Source of the DNA: a virus
DNA length: 26,187 bases
Direction: 5' to 3' (one strand)
IMG/VR virus record: IMGVR_UViG_3300005939_000045
Coordinates: 1-26,187 of that record
The notes under the pieces were generated by a model that worked only from the letters and a program-made list of their open reading frames with translations, searched no databases and had not been told where the DNA came from. The position numbers were made by a program, and so were the translations under genes. Every line of letters begins with the position of its first letter. Position 1 is the stretch's first letter. Of this stretch, positions 9,432-20,102 are shown in pieces.

Positions 9432-10664
9432 ATGTTCGAGCAAGTAAAAGATTTTAATTGGGAAATGTATGAAGACGGTTACACAGGAGCTTCTAAATTA
9501 ACACCCAATATAAAGATATTAGGATCAGACCACAAAAATAAATGCTTCTCTCGAGAGCCCTACGCCCAAAAGTTATTCGACTTATATTCGGGCCAAGATT
9601 CCAAAATAGTTAAAAAAGATTTATCCAAAGGAGATTGTGTATTAGTCTTAGACATCTTTAATATTAAAGATACTGAAATTGATTTAGAAATAGCTGGCGG
9701 ATTAACTATATCTATTGACCTTAAGAGGGAGAAGAGATTTGTACAAATGTTTGGTTATAATAACGTTGAGGAATTTACCTCACAATTAAATATCAAAGAA
9801 TATAAAGATAAATTAATCGAAGAGAATCTCATGGCATATGTCATTGAATCTAATCCAGTTAAAATATCATTATGGCAGGGTTATTTAATGAGTATCAGGC
9901 AGGAATTCATGCAGGAATTAGAAAATCCAACACAGGCATATAAATGTAAAGTAATATCAGCTAATAAAGGTGGATTCTTTGTAGAAGTTCAAGGTATTGA
10001 CGCATTTATGCCAGGGTCACTAGCCGCTGCTAATAAGATACAAGATTTCCAATCTTATGTAGGAAAAGAAGTTATTGTAATGATAGAAGACTATTTAAAG
10101 GACATGAAGTCCTTTATAGTGTCCCATAAAAAGTATATCGCCCATATACTTCCGCAAAAACTTAGAGAAATTGATTTAATGGACAAATATACCGGTACTG
10201 TAACAGGTGCTTCGAAATATGGTATCTTTATTGAATTTGGATCAGGGGAAGAATTTATATTTACTGGTTTATTGCACGTTTCTAAAATGACTGAAGAAAC
10301 CAAGGCTTTATTCAAAGCATGGCATTTTAAGCCAGGTGATCCAATCGAATTTTATGTAGGAGAGGTTACTAAAGATAATAGAGTTATATTAACTGAAGAA
10401 GATCCACAAGAAAAATTGAAGAAAATGCAGCAATTTATTTTTGATTCTAAGGATAAAATTTTAGAATCTGAAATAGCAGCAGTTATGAAATTTGGTGTAA
10501 TTGCCAATGTTGGTGATATCACTGGATTGATTCCTCTGAAAGAATTTAAGAAGCACCGAATATTTTTAAACAACTTTGTAGTCAAGGATAAGTTAAGGGT
10601 TATGTTTGACGAATATAAAGATGATAAAGTGGTCTTTCGGTTAGTAGGTAAAGAAGATATATAA
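9432..10664 (+). CDS. Protein with three S1 RNA-binding domains (ribosomal protein S1-like)
   Basis: 410 aa. Three consecutive S1-type OB folds are visible: residues about 169-234 (YKCKVISANKGGFFVEVQGIDAFMP), about 251-323 (YTGTVTGASKYGIFIEF, then TGLLHVSK and PGDPIEFYVGEV), and about 343-405 (EIAAVMKFGVIANVGDITGLIP). The GTV..(S/A)KYG.F(I/V).. pattern with a following LLHVSK is the S1 hallmark. Residues 1-165 are less conserved and include a possible degenerate S1/OB unit near 64-100 (SKGDCVLVLDIFNIKDTEI). It is shorter than cellular S1, which has up to six domains. Large phages are known to carry S1 homologues; the expected role is binding mRNA and influencing its recruitment to host ribosomes, or protecting phage RNA. 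It stands alone as a one-gene unit between its own promoter and a strong terminator. Confidence 0.8.
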   Translation: MFEQVKDFNWEMYEDGYTGASKLTPNIKILGSDHKNKCFSREPYAQKLFDLYSGQDSKIVKKDLSKGDCVLVLDIFNIKDTEIDLEIAGGLTISIDLKREKRFVQMFGYNNVEEFTSQLNIKEYKDKLIEENLMAYVIESNPVKISLWQGYLMSIRQEFMQELENPTQAYKCKVISANKGGFFVEVQGIDAFMPGSLAAANKIQDFQSYVGKEVIVMIEDYLKDMKSFIVSHKKYIAHILPQKLREIDLMDKYTGTVTGASKYGIFIEFGSGEEFIFTGLLHVSKMTEETKALFKAWHFKPGDPIEFYVGEVTKDNRVILTEEDPQEKLKKMQQFIFDSKDKILESEIAAVMKFGVIANVGDITGLIPLKEFKKHRIFLNNFVVKDKLRVMFDEYKDDKVVFRLVGKEDI

Positions 10665-10729: not shown

Positions 10730-12154
10730 ATGAATAAACCAAAACATTATAATTTACCAGAAGTTTTTAATAACACGAACATGGGTTATGTGTTTGAGTT
10801 TTATTCTTCAAAAGATACAAACTTTATTGTTAAAGAATTAAGTGAGTTAACTTCCAAAAGCGTAATGCTTACAAATGGGACTTCTCATTCTCCAAGTTTT
10901 GCCCGAGCTATTTTAGTAAAAGAATATGAAGGGGATAGACCTCGTTATTCTTTTCATATGGGTAGACAAAGATATGATTCAGCAATTCCGTTAATGAAAG
11001 AGGTCCTAGGGTGGATCTCAGAGACCTCTGTTTGCACTAGTGATACTTTGATGAGGGTTAATATGTCTTTTGATCATAGTCATTTAAAGACACTCCAGAG
11101 TATCTCCAGTATGAATGTTCAAAAACTTGTTCTTAAAATAGATGAGGAATTTATTTATGAGAAATTTCCATTACAAGAAGATTCACCTTATTGTATGTCA
11201 ATAAAAACATTACTCCCAGTAACAGAAGCTGTTTATGTTCCTGATTTAGTCAAGAATGTAAATTATGTTATTGGAATTCCAAAAAAGAATTTTTATGGAG
11301 TTAATTTTAAAGATCAAACCCAAGGAGTTTTAGAGTTTAATTATATTGGTGGAGATGATTATTCAGAAATGAGTAAAGAAATTTTAGAAGTTCTTCAATA
11401 TTATGTTATTAAGACTTATCAAAGTCTTAACGAAGTTGAGTTCACAAAACCTGAATTACTAGAACTTCAAACTATGACCGATGAATTTTACAAAATTCAA
11501 GAGGCTTATTATGAACCAGAAAAATTTACTGAATTATTTCCGGAGATAAAAGTTGGAATTGATATGAGAAGAGATACTCAAATGATGAAAGCTTATTGGC
11601 CAAAAATTAGAAATACTTTATTCCAGAGTGTCATAAATAATAACCTTAGAGAAGGAGAATTTAATTTAGACACAGAATATGGAGTTTATCAATTAAGAAG
11701 AGCTGATATAAACTGCACTAATCTAAAAGGATTTGATTTAGTATTATGTAATGTCCAAGGAGTTTTAGAACAATGTAACATGATATCATGTACAATAAAT
11801 AATGCAAGAATATATAATTCAAAGGTGGTTAAAGGAACTACAATTTCGGATTCTTATTTACAAAGAATGACTATAGAAAAAGAGAATACGATTAATAATT
11901 GTTTTGTTGAGAATAACTGGGAATTATTAAATTGTAATATAAATGATAGCATAATAAAATTTGCAGGTATTGGAAAATCAGCAAGAATAGATGAAAGCTC
12001 AGTACTTATAGATAGGGAAGAGAAAAACAGAGCTCCGGCAGTTGGTGTAGAGGTTGAAGAAATGAGAGATTATAAGTGGATTAAAAACCTAACCGGCAAA
12101 AAATCAGATGAACACGTATTTGGAAACGAATACATTAAAAAAAGATACATATAA
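10730..12154 (+). CDS. Possible amidoligase-like protein with C-terminal pentapeptide-like repeats
   Basis: 474 aa, not firmly recognised. The first 220 residues follow the outline of phage amidoligase-like (ATP-grasp-related) proteins: an early YVFEFY strand (residues 20-25, where the family has G-F-E-x-E), a middle segment TSDTLMRVNMSFD (about 103-115, where the family has C-G-x-H-x-H), and FYGVNFKDQTQGVLEFNYIGGDDY (about 188-211; family: AVN, then a (V/L)E(F/Y)R strand). The family's His residues are not seen, so it may be inactive or misassigned. Residues about 325-425 have short repeats spaced about five residues (ADINCTNLKGFDLVLCNVQG), resembling a pentapeptide-repeat beta-helix. First gene of its operon; one base separates its stop from the next start. 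Function unknown; a virion or cell-wall/peptide-modifying role is only a guess. Confidence 0.4.
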   Translation: MNKPKHYNLPEVFNNTNMGYVFEFYSSKDTNFIVKELSELTSKSVMLTNGTSHSPSFARAILVKEYEGDRPRYSFHMGRQRYDSAIPLMKEVLGWISETSVCTSDTLMRVNMSFDHSHLKTLQSISSMNVQKLVLKIDEEFIYEKFPLQEDSPYCMSIKTLLPVTEAVYVPDLVKNVNYVIGIPKKNFYGVNFKDQTQGVLEFNYIGGDDYSEMSKEILEVLQYYVIKTYQSLNEVEFTKPELLELQTMTDEFYKIQEAYYEPEKFTELFPEIKVGIDMRRDTQMMKAYWPKIRNTLFQSVINNNLREGEFNLDTEYGVYQLRRADINCTNLKGFDLVLCNVQGVLEQCNMISCTINNARIYNSKVVKGTTISDSYLQRMTIEKENTINNCFVENNWELLNCNINDSIIKFAGIGKSARIDESSVLIDREEKNRAPAVGVEVEEMRDYKWIKNLTGKKSDEHVFGNEYIKKRYI

Positions 12155-12155
12155 A

Positions 12156-12524
12156 ATGATATTTACAGGAAACCATGAATTACCAAGTCTTGAATTCATT
12201 GAAGATGAAGGTAGGTTAAAAATTTGGGGTAGATCAATTGCGACGGAAGCTAGAGCAGATTTTTGGCAGCCACTAATTGATAAACTAGAAGAATACCTGG
12301 AAGATCCTAGAGATATGGCTGTTACTATAGATCTGGATTATTTCGCAACATCCTCTGCAAAATCTTTGCTAGTAGTATTTAACCTATTAGCTGATAAAGC
12401 AATAATAAAAAATCGTAAAGTCATTATTAAATGGATTTATGAAGATGAAGATATGAAAGAAGCCGGAGAAGATTATATGTCAATGGTATCTAAATTAGAA
12501 TGGAAATTTATAGAAAAAGAATAA
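12156..12524 (+). CDS. SiaC-family (DUF1987) regulatory phosphoprotein homologue
   Basis: 122 aa from the ATG at 12156, which follows the previous stop by one base. A longer start at 12108 would overlap that gene by 47 bases and adds residues unlike the family. The whole protein matches the SiaC/DUF1987 pattern: LKIWGRSIATEARADFWQPL (family: GxSxPExxxxFYxPI), LEEYLEDPRDMAVTIDLDYF, ATSSAKSLL, and the signature WIYEDEDMKEAGEDY. In Pseudomonas aeruginosa SiaC, a Thr in the equivalent YFNTSS motif is phosphorylated by SiaB, and unphosphorylated SiaC activates the diguanylate cyclase SiaD. Here the Thr is kept (T65 in YFATSS). The family has an anti-sigma-antagonist-like fold. No kinase or cyclase partner lies in the window, so I infer that it acts on a host partner or was redeployed for a phage purpose. 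Confidence 0.8.
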   Translation: MIFTGNHELPSLEFIEDEGRLKIWGRSIATEARADFWQPLIDKLEEYLEDPRDMAVTIDLDYFATSSAKSLLVVFNLLADKAIIKNRKVIIKWIYEDEDMKEAGEDYMSMVSKLEWKFIEKE

Positions 12525-12525
12525 T

Positions 12526-12924
12526 ATGTCAACAAAGATTCCAAACACCGCCCAACATAATTTTACAGTAGAAGAAGGTATAGCAGCCTATAGTAAATAC
12601 CCTGCAACTAAATGGATAAAATTTGCATTTAAATATTTCTCTAAATCAACAGAGAAAGAAAATTTAAAACCAAGTAAAACCATCACAGGAATATTATTAG
12701 TACTTTTCCTTAGTGGATTTTTAGCTACAGTAATTAAATTACCAAGAGCAATCATAGGTCCTATAACATGCGCATACGCGAGTATATTATCAGTGTTAGT
12801 TCTATTTTTATTAGCAGCTACATTAGCAAATAATAGAAGAATTAAAAAAGTTATAAAAGAACTTGGATGTTCCATAGAAGAATGGAATAAATTCGTAAAT
12901 TCTCACAGAGATGAATTAAAATAA
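12526..12924 (+). CDS. Small membrane protein with two transmembrane helices
   Basis: 132 aa. Two hydrophobic helices are clear: residues about 53-71 (TITGILLVLFLSGFLATVI) and about 76-99 (IIGPITCAYASILSVLVLFL). They are followed by a basic segment (NNRRIKKVIKEL) and a short acidic/helical tail. The first 50 residues are soluble and contain several aromatic-lysine pairs (WIKFAFKYF). The ATG comes one base after the stop of the SiaC-like gene, so the two are probably co-translated, and a membrane partner or tether for that protein is conceivable. A holin cannot be excluded, but no lysin gene is nearby. No family recognised. Confidence 0.6.
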   Translation: MSTKIPNTAQHNFTVEEGIAAYSKYPATKWIKFAFKYFSKSTEKENLKPSKTITGILLVLFLSGFLATVIKLPRAIIGPITCAYASILSVLVLFLLAATLANNRRIKKVIKELGCSIEEWNKFVNSHRDELK

Positions 12925-12932
12925 AAAGTTAA

Positions 12933-13667
12933 ATGACTAAACAAGAACTTATAGATGAAGTAAAAGGTGAATTAACTGCCTCTTGTTCTCTTCCTTTTTC
13001 ACCTCCTGATAAGGAAATTACACGTATAATCGATTTAGAATCTAGATGGTTATTCAGAGAATACAGAGATGCTTTGGAAACTCGTTGGTATATCTTAGAT
13101 AAAAAATGGTATGGCACTCCAGAATGGAAAGCGACTAGAACTTTTCAATTACCTGAATGCTGTGTAGGTATTCAAGTTGTTTATGAATTGACTGGTGGCT
13201 CAAGAGTATTTGGTATTCATGACCCCGACCTTCAATTTGATAGATTAATGGCTGCTGACCTTTATTTGACTCCATTATCTTCAGATCAGATTACATATCG
13301 TACTATTCAGTGGTCATTTTGGGATTTATCAAGAGCCTTTAATCTTAGAGATATTCAAACAAAATTTAACTTAAACACTCACAGAATAGCTATACTTGGT
13401 AGAGATCCAGTTGAATCTTTATTTATTACCACAATGAATACTATTCCACACGAAGAATTTTATGATGATCCACTTGTTATTAAATGGATGATTGCAAAAG
13501 GAAAAATTTCATTAGCAAGAATTTTAGGAACTTTCAGTTATACTCTTCTTGGAAATGTTACAATTAATTATGCAGATATTAGAGCCGAAGGACAAGAAGA
13601 ATTAAAGGAGTTAAAAGAAAAGATTGCAAGCGACAATACTCCGGACTGGTTCCACATGTTCAACTAA
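12933..13667 (+). CDS. Probable virion structural (neck/head-completion type) protein
   Basis: 244 aa, soluble, no signal peptide. The C-terminal 70 residues (VIKWMIAKGKISLARILGTF, then TLLGNVTINYADIRAEGQEEL) resemble a region found in uncharacterised T4-like phage neck or structural proteins: a helix followed by a (L/P)GGV-like turn, TxNY, and a charged helix. It ends in an aromatic tail (PDWFHMFN). The middle part (residues about 60-170) is rich in Trp/Tyr and beta strands. The ATG lies 8 bases after the preceding stop with an A-rich leader. Position in a structural late operon fits, but I do not recognise the exact family. Confidence 0.4.
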   Translation: MTKQELIDEVKGELTASCSLPFSPPDKEITRIIDLESRWLFREYRDALETRWYILDKKWYGTPEWKATRTFQLPECCVGIQVVYELTGGSRVFGIHDPDLQFDRLMAADLYLTPLSSDQITYRTIQWSFWDLSRAFNLRDIQTKFNLNTHRIAILGRDPVESLFITTMNTIPHEEFYDDPLVIKWMIAKGKISLARILGTFSYTLLGNVTINYADIRAEGQEELKELKEKIASDNTPDWFHMFN

Positions 13668-16992: not shown

Positions 16993-17355
16993 ATGATACA
17001 AGAGATTTATATACGAAATCCTGAAGATCCTAACTTCAAAGTGAACGTGTTAGATCACTCAGATCCTATAGAAAGTATTATTTCCAAGATTAAAGTTATT
17101 TTTGGCACCCGCCAAGGACAAGTAATGGGTGATCTTAATTTTGGAGCTGGAATAGAGGATTTAGTATTTGAATCAAGAATAAACAAATTACAATTAGAAG
17201 AGGACATCAAGAGACAAATTGATGAATATGTTTCAGAATCTGCAGAATATAGAATTAGACCAAGTGTATCATTTGGAAGAGCTGAGGGATATGATTATTG
17301 TGTCATTGACATATTCATTGATGATCAAAGAACTTTTGGAATACTTATCAAGTGA
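16993..17355 (+). CDS. 25: Baseplate wedge protein, gp25 / GPW family
   Basis: 120 aa, the usual length for phage gp25 (T4 gp25 is about 130 aa). The family pattern is clear: DPIESIISKIKVIFGTRQGQ (about residues 24-43), VMGDLNFGAGIEDLVFE (family: hydrophobic-x-P/D-x-x-FG-x-x-L...LVFE), a helix LEEDIKRQIDEYV, and a C-terminal beta part ending VIDIFIDDQRTFGI. In T4-type tails, gp25 forms the core of the baseplate wedge next to gp6 and gp53 and links the sheath to the baseplate. It is the first gene of the baseplate operon, directly behind a promoter motif. Stop is TGA at 17353-17355. Confidence 0.85.
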   Translation: MIQEIYIRNPEDPNFKVNVLDHSDPIESIISKIKVIFGTRQGQVMGDLNFGAGIEDLVFESRINKLQLEEDIKRQIDEYVSESAEYRIRPSVSFGRAEGYDYCVIDIFIDDQRTFGILIK

Positions 17356-17371
17356 GATATATAAAATAAAA
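17355..17371 (+). promoter_or_regulatory. Late-promoter-like motif directly abutting the homing endonuclease start
   Basis: AGATATATAAAATAAAA is identical to the copy before gp25. Its first base is the last base of the gp25 stop codon and its last base touches the ATG at 17372. If it is a promoter, the transcript would be leaderless or nearly so. It may be the original promoter of the gp6-like gene, now separated from it by the inserted endonuclease gene. Confidence 0.5.
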
Positions 17372-18181
17372 ATGAATTATATTTACATTACAACTAATTT
17401 AAAAAATGGTAAACAATATATAGGTTCACATAAAGGAACTCAAGATGATAATTATTTAGGAAGTGGAAAATTATTGTTATATTCTGTTAAAAAATATGGT
17501 AAAGAGAAATTTAAAAGAGAAATATTAGAAGAATGTAAGGTGGAAGATAATTTAATATTAGAAACTAAATATATTAAAGAATATAATACTCTTACACCAA
17601 ATGGCTATAATATTTTAGAAAATGGAGGTCATATTATTTGGACAAATGAATTAAGAAAGAAAATAAGTGATAAACAAAAAGGGAAAACTCTTTCTACAGA
17701 TCATAAAAAAAATATAGGTAATTCATTAAAAGGAAAAAAACGAGATCCTAAAATTGGAAAAAAAATAAGAGAAACACGAATAAAAAACGATTCGTATAAA
17801 GTAAAAGATTCAACTAAGGAAAAAATAAGAATTGCAAATTTAGGAGAAAAAAATCCTAATTGGGGAAAGATTAGATCTAAAGAAACAAAAGAAAAGATAA
17901 GACAATCTAATTTAGGTAAAAAAAGATCTGAAGAAGTTAAAAAAAATATGAGTATTGGACAAATTGGAAAAAAATTATCAAAAGAGCATATTAAACAATT
18001 ACAAAAAAATGGTAAAAAAAATAAAGGGATAAAACATTCAGAAAAATCTAAAGATAATATGAGTAAAGCACATATTGGCATAAAACAAAAAAGAATAGTT
18101 TGTAAATATTGTAAAAAGGATATAGCAGTTAATATATATACAAGATTTCATGGAGAAAAATGTAAAAATAAACTAATTTAA
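17372..18181 (+). CDS. GIY-YIG homing endonuclease with NUMOD3 repeats (SegA-like)
   Basis: 269 aa from the ATG at 17372. An upstream in-frame ATG at 17219 lies inside gp25 and gives residues unlike the family, so I reject it. The N-terminal GIY-YIG nuclease shows Y-I-Y (residues 3-5), Y-I-G (16-18), the usual YLGSGKLLLYSVKKYGKEKF, and LETKYIKEYNT with the probable metal-binding Glu (about E64). Residues about 95-235 hold several NUMOD3-like DNA-binding repeats (KEKIRIANLGEKNPNWGK, KEKIRQSNLGKKRS). The C-terminus is a zinc-finger-like CKYCKKDI...FHGEKC. Such selfish enzymes cut an allele lacking the gene and spread by repair. It sits between gp25 and the gp6-like gene, as a free-standing insertion. 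It is visibly richer in A and in Lys/Asn codons than its neighbours, a sign of separate origin. It probably cuts in gp25 or the gp6-like gene of rival phages. Confidence 0.88.
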   Translation: MNYIYITTNLKNGKQYIGSHKGTQDDNYLGSGKLLLYSVKKYGKEKFKREILEECKVEDNLILETKYIKEYNTLTPNGYNILENGGHIIWTNELRKKISDKQKGKTLSTDHKKNIGNSLKGKKRDPKIGKKIRETRIKNDSYKVKDSTKEKIRIANLGEKNPNWGKIRSKETKEKIRQSNLGKKRSEEVKKNMSIGQIGKKLSKEHIKQLQKNGKKNKGIKHSEKSKDNMSKAHIGIKQKRIVCKYCKKDIAVNIYTRFHGEKCKNKLI

Positions 18182-18182
18182 T

Positions 18183-20102
18183 ATGGCTAGAACACCGAAC
18201 ATATTTAAAACACAACGAATTCGCTTATCCGAGCTATATCAGGATTCAATAAATTTCCTATCAACAACTTATGGTAATGTAGGACAATACTTTACTATGG
18301 CATCTCCTATGGGGCAGCTGTTACAAGTTATGTTGAATTATGGTAGAATGATTTTGTTTTATATCGAAGATTCAATTACAGAATTAAACATTAAAACTGC
18401 ATCTCGACCTAATAGTGTTAAAGGTTTAGCTAGTTTAACTGGCCATAATCCTTCTAGGGCTATGGCTGCCAGAGGGACTTTAACTTTTAATTGGAATGGT
18501 CAAAAATTAGATACTTATTCAAGTGTAGTAGTTGTTCCAAATTATACAACTCTTACTAACCAATCAAATGGATTAACTTATACTATTGTTCTTCCTGGTG
18601 AGGAGGCAAGACTTAACTTAACTAGCATTAAGAATATTTTGAATTGTAATATAATGCAAGGAACTATTGAGTACCAACAAGCAACTGGTACAGGAGATCC
18701 ATTACAATCATTTAATTTTGCAACTAAAAAGGGGGCTTCTATTGATAATTATTTTGTAAACGTTTATGTTAATGGAAAATTATGGCCCATGCAAGAATCT
18801 ATTTTAGATATGACATTTGATTTAGAAGGATGTTTAGTAAAAACAGGGCAGACTGGTGGACTCGATGTATTCTTTGGGAATGGATATAACGGAAAGGTAC
18901 CTGCATTAGGTTCTACTATTTTAGTTGAATATCTTATAACTGATGGAGAACCTGGAAATATAACTACCCAACAAGCAAACGCCCAGGATCAATGGAAATT
19001 TACATCTACTGGATATGCTCTTAATGGAGAGCAAATTGACTTAAATAAAATTTTAAATATTTCAGTTAAGAACACAATATTATTTGGAACATTAGAAGAG
19101 CCTTTGTATCTAACAAGGTTGTTAGCCCCTCATATGTCAAGAAGCTTTGTTCTAGCAAATGTAAATAACTACATTTATTTTTTACGTAAGCTAAATATGT
19201 TTACGATTATTGATGCAATACCAGGTTTTGCAACATTCGAAGATCAATTTGCACTAGATAAATATAATCAATCTAAGGGCGCATACGAACAACTTCAACA
19301 ACAATATTTAAATCTTACTGCAACATATGGAGTTGGATCTACACAAGCTATATCTAAAAAGGAAGAATTAGATGTAGCTAATCAACAATTATTCATAAAC
19401 CAACAAATATTAGAAGAACAAAAGAAAGATGATAACGTAATTTATTTGTTCTTAATTCCTGATGTCAATAAAAGAATTGCACCAGGAATAAATTATTTTG
19501 ATGCTCCGATTGAATCTTTTCAATTATCAAGTGACGAAGAAACTGCCATTCTTGATTTAATTGAAGAAAGTGGCCAAAGAGTTGTTACTGTAGATAATGC
19601 AATCTTAGATATTCAATATCCAAGATTTGTTCTTAATATGTCCCTTATTTTATGGGAAGGATATGAATATGATAACGTTAGAGAATCTATAATTTCTGCA
19701 ACATCTGATTATTTTTTGAAAAACACAAGAAGAGATAGAATTCCAGTTTCTGATATTGTAAGAGTTATTGAAGGCGTCGATGGAGTAGACTCAGTAAATG
19801 TATGGTTTGATGCCGACAAAGATAATTTTAATATTTATAGAACTCATTATGGAATAGATGATTACGGAGATATCATATTAGAAAGAACTGTTAAAGATGC
19901 TTGGAATAATAGCGTACCAGTTAAAGATGTATATGCTATGATAAGAGGTGGTTGGGAAAGTTCTAATGGAGTTTATTATGAAGATGGAACAGATAAAAGT
20001 AAATTATCAACAATAAATATTCAGGTTAGGGGTTATACTTCTAAAGATTTAAATGAGGAAAATAACCAAGCAATCTTAAATAATGTAGGAACTAACGTAT
20101 GA
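18183..20102 (+). CDS. 6: Baseplate wedge protein, gp6 / baseplate-J family
   Basis: 639 aa. Residues about 226-260 carry the baseplate-J hallmark (LDVFFGNGYNGKVPALGSTI, then VEYLITDGEPGNI; family: FG-D/N-G-x-x-G-x-x-P-x-x-G). The C-terminal part (about 500-560) has the other conserved block, VRESIISATSDYFLKNTRRD and IPVSDIVRVIEGVDGVDSVN. The N-terminus is helical (RLSELYQDSINFLSTTYGN) and should contact other wedge proteins. A coiled-coil insert of about 60 residues (about 360-420, YEQLQQQYLNLTATYG, ILEEQKKDD) interrupts the body. In contractile tails, gp6 dimers form the ring that holds the wedges together. Downstream of gp25 as in related phages, apart from the inserted endonuclease. The stop TGA overlaps the next ATG by four bases. 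Confidence 0.75.
   Translation: MARTPNIFKTQRIRLSELYQDSINFLSTTYGNVGQYFTMASPMGQLLQVMLNYGRMILFYIEDSITELNIKTASRPNSVKGLASLTGHNPSRAMAARGTLTFNWNGQKLDTYSSVVVVPNYTTLTNQSNGLTYTIVLPGEEARLNLTSIKNILNCNIMQGTIEYQQATGTGDPLQSFNFATKKGASIDNYFVNVYVNGKLWPMQESILDMTFDLEGCLVKTGQTGGLDVFFGNGYNGKVPALGSTILVEYLITDGEPGNITTQQANAQDQWKFTSTGYALNGEQIDLNKILNISVKNTILFGTLEEPLYLTRLLAPHMSRSFVLANVNNYIYFLRKLNMFTIIDAIPGFATFEDQFALDKYNQSKGAYEQLQQQYLNLTATYGVGSTQAISKKEELDVANQQLFINQQILEEQKKDDNVIYLFLIPDVNKRIAPGINYFDAPIESFQLSSDEETAILDLIEESGQRVVTVDNAILDIQYPRFVLNMSLILWEGYEYDNVRESIISATSDYFLKNTRRDRIPVSDIVRVIEGVDGVDSVNVWFDADKDNFNIYRTHYGIDDYGDIILERTVKDAWNNSVPVKDVYAMIRGGWESSNGVYYEDGTDKSKLSTINIQVRGYTSKDLNEENNQAILNNVGTNV

What the first reader, a model, noticed from the sequence alone, without database searches (positions are those of the whole stretch)
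12156..12524. Phage-encoded SiaC-family protein keeping the phospho-acceptor threonine
The protein carries the full DUF1987/SiaC signature, including YFATSS with T65 and DEDMKEAGEDY. In bacteria this family switches a diguanylate cyclase according to phosphorylation by SiaB. A phage copy in a structural operon, without a kinase or cyclase nearby, suggests manipulation of host c-di-GMP/biofilm signalling or mimicry of a host partner protein.
Basis: partly seen in the sequence, partly recalled or inferred. Interest (0 to 1): 0.65.

Follow-up and report, generated by a model that had tools for sequence, protein, structure and literature searches.

The report
Phage-borne copy of a bacterial switch protein

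Summary
ORF 12156-12524 (+) encodes a 122-aa SiaC-family protein (Pfam PF09345, E 4.8e-24). Its predicted fold (pLDDT 94) matches Pseudomonas SiaC crystal structures at TM about 0.9, and the acceptor threonine is kept (T65 = T68). One detail is wrong: the motif is not intact. The Asn before the threonine, present in all 88 bacterial homologues compared, is Ala64 here.

The phage is related to Lak-type/"Mahaphage" megaphages of Bacteroidota. The gene lies in a variable cargo slot between two conserved late genes. That slot is empty in 10 of 28 relatives and holds other genes in most of the rest. SiaC is therefore cargo, not a conserved structural gene. I found eight distinct viral contigs carrying stand-alone SiaC genes in several contexts. 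None carries the kinase SiaB, a GGDEF cyclase or a SpoIIE phosphatase.

Of 36 SiaC-bearing Bacteroidota genomes searched, 35 have SiaB-family kinases but only 2 have any GGDEF domain. Best reading: a host-derived SiaC that acts as a surrogate or decoy substrate in the host's SiaB/PP2C partner switch, with an unknown output. I found no earlier report of a phage SiaC in the collections and open-access papers searched.

The parts
12156..12524 (+). SiaC-family (PF09345/DUF1987) protein, 122 aa; predicted phospho-acceptor T65 (codon 12348-12350); N-to-A substitution at residue 64 (codon 12345-12347)
   Evidence: Pfam E 4.8e-24; AF2 pLDDT 94.3; Foldseek to 6k4f/6kko/7e6g TM about 0.9; alignment
10730..12154 (+). 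Conserved 474-aa late gene forming the left edge of the cargo slot; predicted glutamine-synthetase/amidoligase-like body with a beta-strand-rich C-terminus (weak fold match)
   Evidence: Found in nearly all relatives whose contigs reach this region; AF2 84.5, Foldseek glutamine synthetase E 2e-4 but TM only about 0.25-0.3; stop codon is 1 bp before the SiaC start
12526..12924 (+). Small protein with hydrophobic, membrane-like segments (132 aa), second cargo gene; also beside SiaC in L059, and present without SiaC in L008, L011, L012
   Evidence: 1 bp after the SiaC stop
12933..13667 (+). Head-tail adaptor (Ad2-like), conserved right edge of the slot
   Evidence: PHROG 211 E 2e-5; conserved in relatives
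9432..10664 (+). S1 RNA-binding-domain protein (context)
   Evidence: Pfam S1 E 4.2e-21
16993..17355 (+). gp25-like baseplate wedge protein (context: late/structural cluster)
   Evidence: Pfam GPW_gp25 E 1.4e-5, just under its cut-off
18183..20102 (+). gp6-like baseplate wedge protein used to place the phage
   Evidence: PHROG 219 E 2e-21; 44% to Lak phages; 47 IMG/VR contigs

Best explanation
The gene is a host-derived, stand-alone SiaC phosphoprotein carried as accessory cargo by a Lak-related megaphage of Bacteroidota. Shown: family, fold, acceptor threonine, cargo-slot position, and absence of partner genes in the viral records searched. Inferred: it is made late, because it is packed 1 bp from its late-gene neighbours. 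It then enters the host's SiaB-kinase/SpoIIE-PP2C partner switch and competes with the host's own SiaC, either as a decoy substrate that occupies SiaB-type kinases or as a surrogate that holds the downstream partner in one state. The downstream partner is unlikely to be a diguanylate cyclase in these hosts, so the output is some other, still unknown, SiaC-controlled function.
For: Family and fold. T65 is kept and the acceptor is T or S in all 8 phage copies; the Tyr and Trp equivalent to Y62 and W93 are also invariant. Stand-alone in all 8 viral carriers: no SiaB/DUF6272, no GGDEF (the 9 records include all 8 carriers), no SpoIIE PP2C. SiaC-bearing Bacteroidota have the partners: SiaB family in 35/36 genomes; 38 of 80 loci have SiaB immediately upstream and one has a SiaB-SiaC fusion; SpoIIE PP2C genes with PAS/GAF/TPR sensors are nearby; two DUF6272 neighbours tested pass NCBI's SiaB-family kinase model. 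Host phylum: the gp6 relatives are phages of Prevotella, Tenacibaculum, Flavobacterium and Chryseobacterium (plus Sphingomonas phage PAU), and the SiaC relatives in bacteria are almost all Bacteroidota. Cargo behaviour: the slot is empty in 10 of 28 relatives and variable in the others. The mechanism it would exploit (SiaB phosphorylates T68, SiaA removes it, unphosphorylated SiaC binds its target) is established in P. aeruginosa (PMC7647112, PMC8457831).
Against: No experimental data. No host is known for this phage and no host SiaB was paired with it. Loss of the invariant Asn (A64) may weaken target or kinase binding. Late expression is odd for a takeover protein. T65 phosphorylation is inferred by homology only. 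The target of SiaC in Bacteroidota is unknown.
Confidence: 0.55

Rival explanations
1. The protein acts as in Pseudomonas: unphosphorylated phage SiaC binds a host diguanylate cyclase and raises c-di-GMP/biofilm.
For: SiaC fold and T65 kept; in P. aeruginosa SiaC activates the cyclase SiaD (PMC8457831).
Against: Only 2 of 36 SiaC-bearing Bacteroidota genomes have any GGDEF domain (control genomes rang). The motif scan of the 80 SiaC loci gave only three weak hits, all five genes away in similar 272-274-aa proteins. A64 removes one of the three residues of the N67/T68/S69 SiaD-binding triad. Below NCBI's SiaC equivalog cut-off.
Confidence: 0.06
2. It is a virion or morphogenesis component: the SiaC fold was re-used as a structural or assembly factor, which is why it sits among late genes.
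For: Packed 1 bp from its neighbours in the late cluster; same position in the phage with the closest copy, L059.
Against: Absent from the slot in nearly all relatives that keep both flanking genes; other phages carry SiaC away from structural genes, beside tRNA arrays or an epimerase-like gene; it lacks the N-terminal tag seen on many cargo proteins of these phages; the acceptor T/S would not need to be kept.
Confidence: 0.1
3. SiaC family member re-targeted to a new phage or host partner unrelated to SiaB/PP2C, for example a STAS-like anti-anti-sigma or adaptor role.
For: Long branches of several phage copies in the tree; A64 substitution; the positions equivalent to Pae D29, Y31, D79 and R103 differ from Pseudomonas, though most Bacteroidota copies differ there too.
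Against: All 8 phage copies keep T/S at the acceptor and the invariant Tyr and Trp, which argues that phosphorylation still matters.
Confidence: 0.24
4. Passenger gene: recently picked-up host DNA with no selected function.
For: The slot is an insertion hot spot.
Against: Composition matches its neighbours (GC 0.317, GC3 0.195), an intact 54%-identical copy sits in the same slot in another phage, and phage copies recur in 8 contigs with the acceptor kept.
Confidence: 0.05

Closest known systems
Pseudomonas aeruginosa SiaC (PDB 6k4f, 6kkp, 6kko, 7e6g), part of the SiaABCD partner switch
   Same: Family, fold (TM about 0.9), acceptor Thr in the same place, invariant Tyr and Trp
   Different: About 23% identity; Ala for the N67 equivalent; no siaB, siaD or SpoIIE phosphatase gene found with it; below the NCBI SiaC equivalog cut-off
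Bacteroidota SiaC/DUF1987 proteins, often adjacent to or fused with SiaB-family kinases (DUF6272) and near SpoIIE PP2C proteins
   Same: Closest cellular relatives (up to 42-43% identity); same acceptor motif
   Different: The phage copy is stand-alone and lacks the Asn conserved in all of them
SiaC copies in other viral contigs found here (L059, L060, L061, L062, L145, L146, L149)
   Same: Stand-alone SiaC in viral contigs; L059 (54%) sits in the same slot
   Different: Different genomic contexts in the others; all keep Asn; L149 has Ser as acceptor
Phage proteins that interfere with host signalling, such as PIT4 of Pseudomonas phage LSL4 (PMC10714779, affects two-component systems)
   Same: General strategy: a small phage protein acting on host signal transduction
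   Different: Unrelated protein and pathway; no SiaC-type phage protein appeared in the open-access papers searched

Membership tests
SiaC family (Pfam PF09345, formerly DUF1987) | Profile match above Pfam's gathering score over the whole domain | tested here: met
   84.8 bits against 24.5, profile 4-119 of 120
SiaC family (Pfam PF09345, formerly DUF1987) | SiaC fold | tested here: met
   AF2 pLDDT 94.3; Foldseek hits 1-8 are all SiaC, TM 0.87-0.92
SiaC family (Pfam PF09345, formerly DUF1987) | Acceptor Thr/Ser preceded by the conserved Asn | tested here: inconclusive
   T65 present; the preceding Asn (88/88 in bacteria) is Ala64
SiaC, biofilm-regulation phosphoprotein (NCBIfam NF038265 equivalog) | Score above the equivalog cut-off of 150 bits | tested here: not met
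   44.7 bits; four Bacteroidota SiaCs (tblastn segments) also score only 66-86
SiaABCD-type partner switch | Kinase SiaB encoded with SiaC | tested here: not met
   No DUF6272 in any of the 8 viral carriers; the same search found it in 35 of 36 SiaC-bearing bacterial genomes. Most viral records are fragments.
SiaABCD-type partner switch | Diguanylate cyclase SiaD encoded with SiaC | tested here: not met
   No GGDEF in the 9 phage records searched
SiaABCD-type partner switch | Phosphorylation of the acceptor Thr by SiaB and phosphorylation-dependent binding to a target | not testable with these tools
   Needs biochemistry
Phage structural/virion protein | Conserved at the locus across the lineage like its structural neighbours | tested here: not met
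   Of 28 relatives with both flanking genes, only L059 has SiaC in the slot

The most novel reading that the evidence does not exclude
Megaphages of Bacteroidota repeatedly capture SiaC and use it as a decoy phospho-acceptor that jams a widespread, GGDEF-independent SiaB/PP2C partner switch, which would make that switch a host stress or anti-phage response worth disabling.
Probability: 0.25. Interest if true: 0.72.

Novelty: new member of a known kind. Interest (0 to 1): 0.45.

Why it matters
SiaB/SiaC partner switches are abundant in Bacteroidota (up to 13 SiaB-family hits per genome), yet their output appears unknown; no paper found in the library describes them. Phages that carry the regulated protein alone point to this switch as something worth controlling during infection, and give a small, testable handle on its function. 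It also corrects a natural but wrong inference, that SiaC means c-di-GMP.

Tried and rejected
No SiaC match by tblastn in 50,697 annotated phage records, with the window protein or the L062 copy. No PHROG, PADLOC or convincing BFVD structure hit (best E 0.011). SiaC searched for and not found in Lak-C1 or LR756500; the weak LR756501 hit covers about half the profile and contains stops, rejected. A structure of the natural SiaB-SiaC fusion (L065) was prepared to examine the kinase interface, but the tool gives no coordinates and two of three alignments appeared to place SiaB rows on the SiaC half, so the job was not spent. Monophyly of phage SiaCs: not resolved; the best tree needs 4 changes, but a single clade is not rejected (p-AU 0.33), so independent capture is suggested, not shown. 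Recent acquisition by composition: no sign. No Rfam hit in the window. Nine cargo genes of the slot in other relatives gave no Pfam hits.

Full report
1. The observation. ORF 12156-12524 (+) encodes 122 aa. Pfam assigns it to SiaC (PF09345) at E 4.8e-24 over the whole domain. By sequence the only solved relatives below E 0.01 are P. aeruginosa SiaC. AlphaFold2 on a 36-row alignment gives pLDDT 94.3, and the top eight PDB fold matches are all SiaC at TM 0.87-0.92. The acceptor threonine is residue 65 as stated and aligns with T68, the residue phosphorylated by SiaB and dephosphorylated by SiaA in P. aeruginosa (PMC7647112).

2. A correction. The motif is YFATSS, where the family has Y-F-N-T-[SA]-S. 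The Asn is present in all 88 bacterial sequences aligned and in the seven other phage copies, and is Ala only here. In P. aeruginosa N67, T68 and S69 together form a key part of the SiaD contact: the triple alanine mutant loses binding, while N67A alone still restores biofilm formation (PMC8457831). The substitution is therefore notable but not proof of inactivity. NCBI's equivalog model for the biofilm regulator SiaC scores 44.7 bits against a cut-off of 150; four Bacteroidota SiaCs also fall short of it (66-86 bits). The right name is SiaC-family protein, not SiaC.

3. The phage. The window is an IMG/VR fragment (G000). Its gp6-like baseplate protein is 44% identical to Prevotella Lak phages and 31% to the 735-kb LR756501 genome; the remaining matches are other uncultured huge phages, phages of Flavobacterium, Tenacibaculum and Chryseobacterium, and Sphingomonas phage PAU. 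PMC7162821 places the genomes over 634 kb in the Mahaphage clade with predicted Bacteroidetes hosts, as for Lak phages. A Bacteroidota host is therefore likely but unproven. The scan with the gp6-like protein returned 47 IMG/VR contigs.

4. The gene's place. It begins 1 bp after the stop of a conserved 474-aa gene and ends 1 bp before the next gene; composition matches the neighbours. Across 28 relatives that keep both the 474-aa gene and the head-tail adaptor gene, the space between them is empty in 10 (gap -13 to 21 bp) and filled with differing small genes or genes related to the window's GIY-YIG-like ORF in the others. Only the window and L059, whose SiaC is 54% identical, hold SiaC there; L008, among the closest relatives by gp6 (80%), lacks it. 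This is a cargo slot. Late expression is inferred from the packing and is not shown.

5. Recurrence. Scans of viral contigs found eight distinct carriers: the window phage, L059, L060, L061 (260-kb contig), L062 (323-kb contig), L145 (167 kb), L146 and L149. Contexts differ: the late-gene slot (window, L059), a tRNA-array region (L062, L146), next to an epimerase-like gene (L061), near a transposase-like gene (L145), and near an integrase-like gene (L149); the last three are read from the sequence, without a family search. The acceptor is Thr in seven and Ser in L149. None carries SiaB, a GGDEF domain or a SpoIIE phosphatase. Most are fragments, so absence is shown only as far as each record goes. 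SiaC is absent from the complete Lak-C1 genome.

6. Bacterial relatives. The 80 best genomic loci are Bacteroidota apart from one labelled Chlorobi. In 38, a SiaB-family kinase gene lies immediately upstream, and in L065 the two are fused; the two DUF6272 neighbours tested pass NCBI's SiaB-family kinase model. SpoIIE PP2C proteins with PAS, GAF or TPR domains are nearby. Of 36 such genomes searched whole, 35 have SiaB-family proteins and only 2 have any GGDEF domain at E up to 1e-6 (the control genomes rang). MAG completeness is not known, but one family was found almost everywhere and the other almost nowhere. In Bacteroidota, SiaC must mostly act on something other than a diguanylate cyclase.

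7. Tree. The window and L059 group with 99-100% bootstrap support. L061 and L146 group with 100%. L145 falls among bacterial sequences with modest support (82/80). The best tree needs four changes of the phage label, but one phage clade is not rejected (p-AU 0.33), branches are long and columns few. Repeated capture is suggested, not shown.

8. Mechanism. Best supported: a surrogate or decoy phospho-acceptor in the host's SiaB/PP2C switch. Shown: fold, acceptor, stand-alone state, partners present in SiaC-bearing Bacteroidota. Inferred: expression, phosphorylation, competition with host SiaC, benefit to the phage. Decoy is preferred over activator because the acceptor is kept in every phage copy while this copy has lost the Asn next to it; that preference is weak.

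9. Novelty. Of the open-access papers searched, only PMC8457831 uses the name DUF1987 and none describes a phage copy. PHROGs, BFVD and the annotated phage records hold no relative at the thresholds used. Most subscription journals were not searched. The family is known and phage interference with host signalling is known, so I class it as a new member of a known kind.

Noticed in passing
L146:9757-12249 (+) and L062:8590-10306 (+): Phage-encoded Major Vault Protein: Pfam MVP_shoulder E 9.9e-28 and Vault_3 3.3e-14 in L146 (830 aa), PDB vault proteins at E 8e-25; the 323-kb phage contig has a 69%-identical copy. Both lie 1.4-3.3 kb downstream of that phage's SiaC. One library search for major vault protein with phage showed no obvious earlier report in the ten papers listed.
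   Followed up: partly
L059:4250, L153:11733-14119, L060:4685, L022:7726, L016:6865, L039:3885, L011:7086 and others; possibly window 13689: A shared N-terminal tag, roughly M[KR]AK[LF][VI]xE[SKA][LFI], on many otherwise different proteins: 27 of 670 phage ORFs against 0 of 882 bacterial ORFs with a pattern chosen after seeing examples. It resembles in concept the capsid-targeting peptide of T4 internal proteins; SiaC lacks it.
   Followed up: partly
window 10730-12154: The conserved 474-aa late protein is predicted with a body weakly similar to glutamine synthetase (Foldseek E 2e-4, TM only about 0.25) and a strand-rich C-terminus with weak pentapeptide-repeat matches; possibly an amidoligase-type enzyme.
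   Followed up: partly
L065:4662-5621 (+): Natural fusion of a SiaB-family kinase (DUF6272) with SiaC in a Bacteroidota MAG, a ready-made construct for studying the kinase-substrate interface.
   Followed up: partly
window 17219-18181: ORF resembling GIY-YIG homing endonucleases between the gp25-like and gp6-like genes; relatives of it sit at many different positions in related phages, suggesting heavy homing-endonuclease traffic.
   Followed up: no
L060, L153: Several proteins, some of them ankyrin-repeat-like, share the start motif IKHLTPRSEEE.
   Followed up: no
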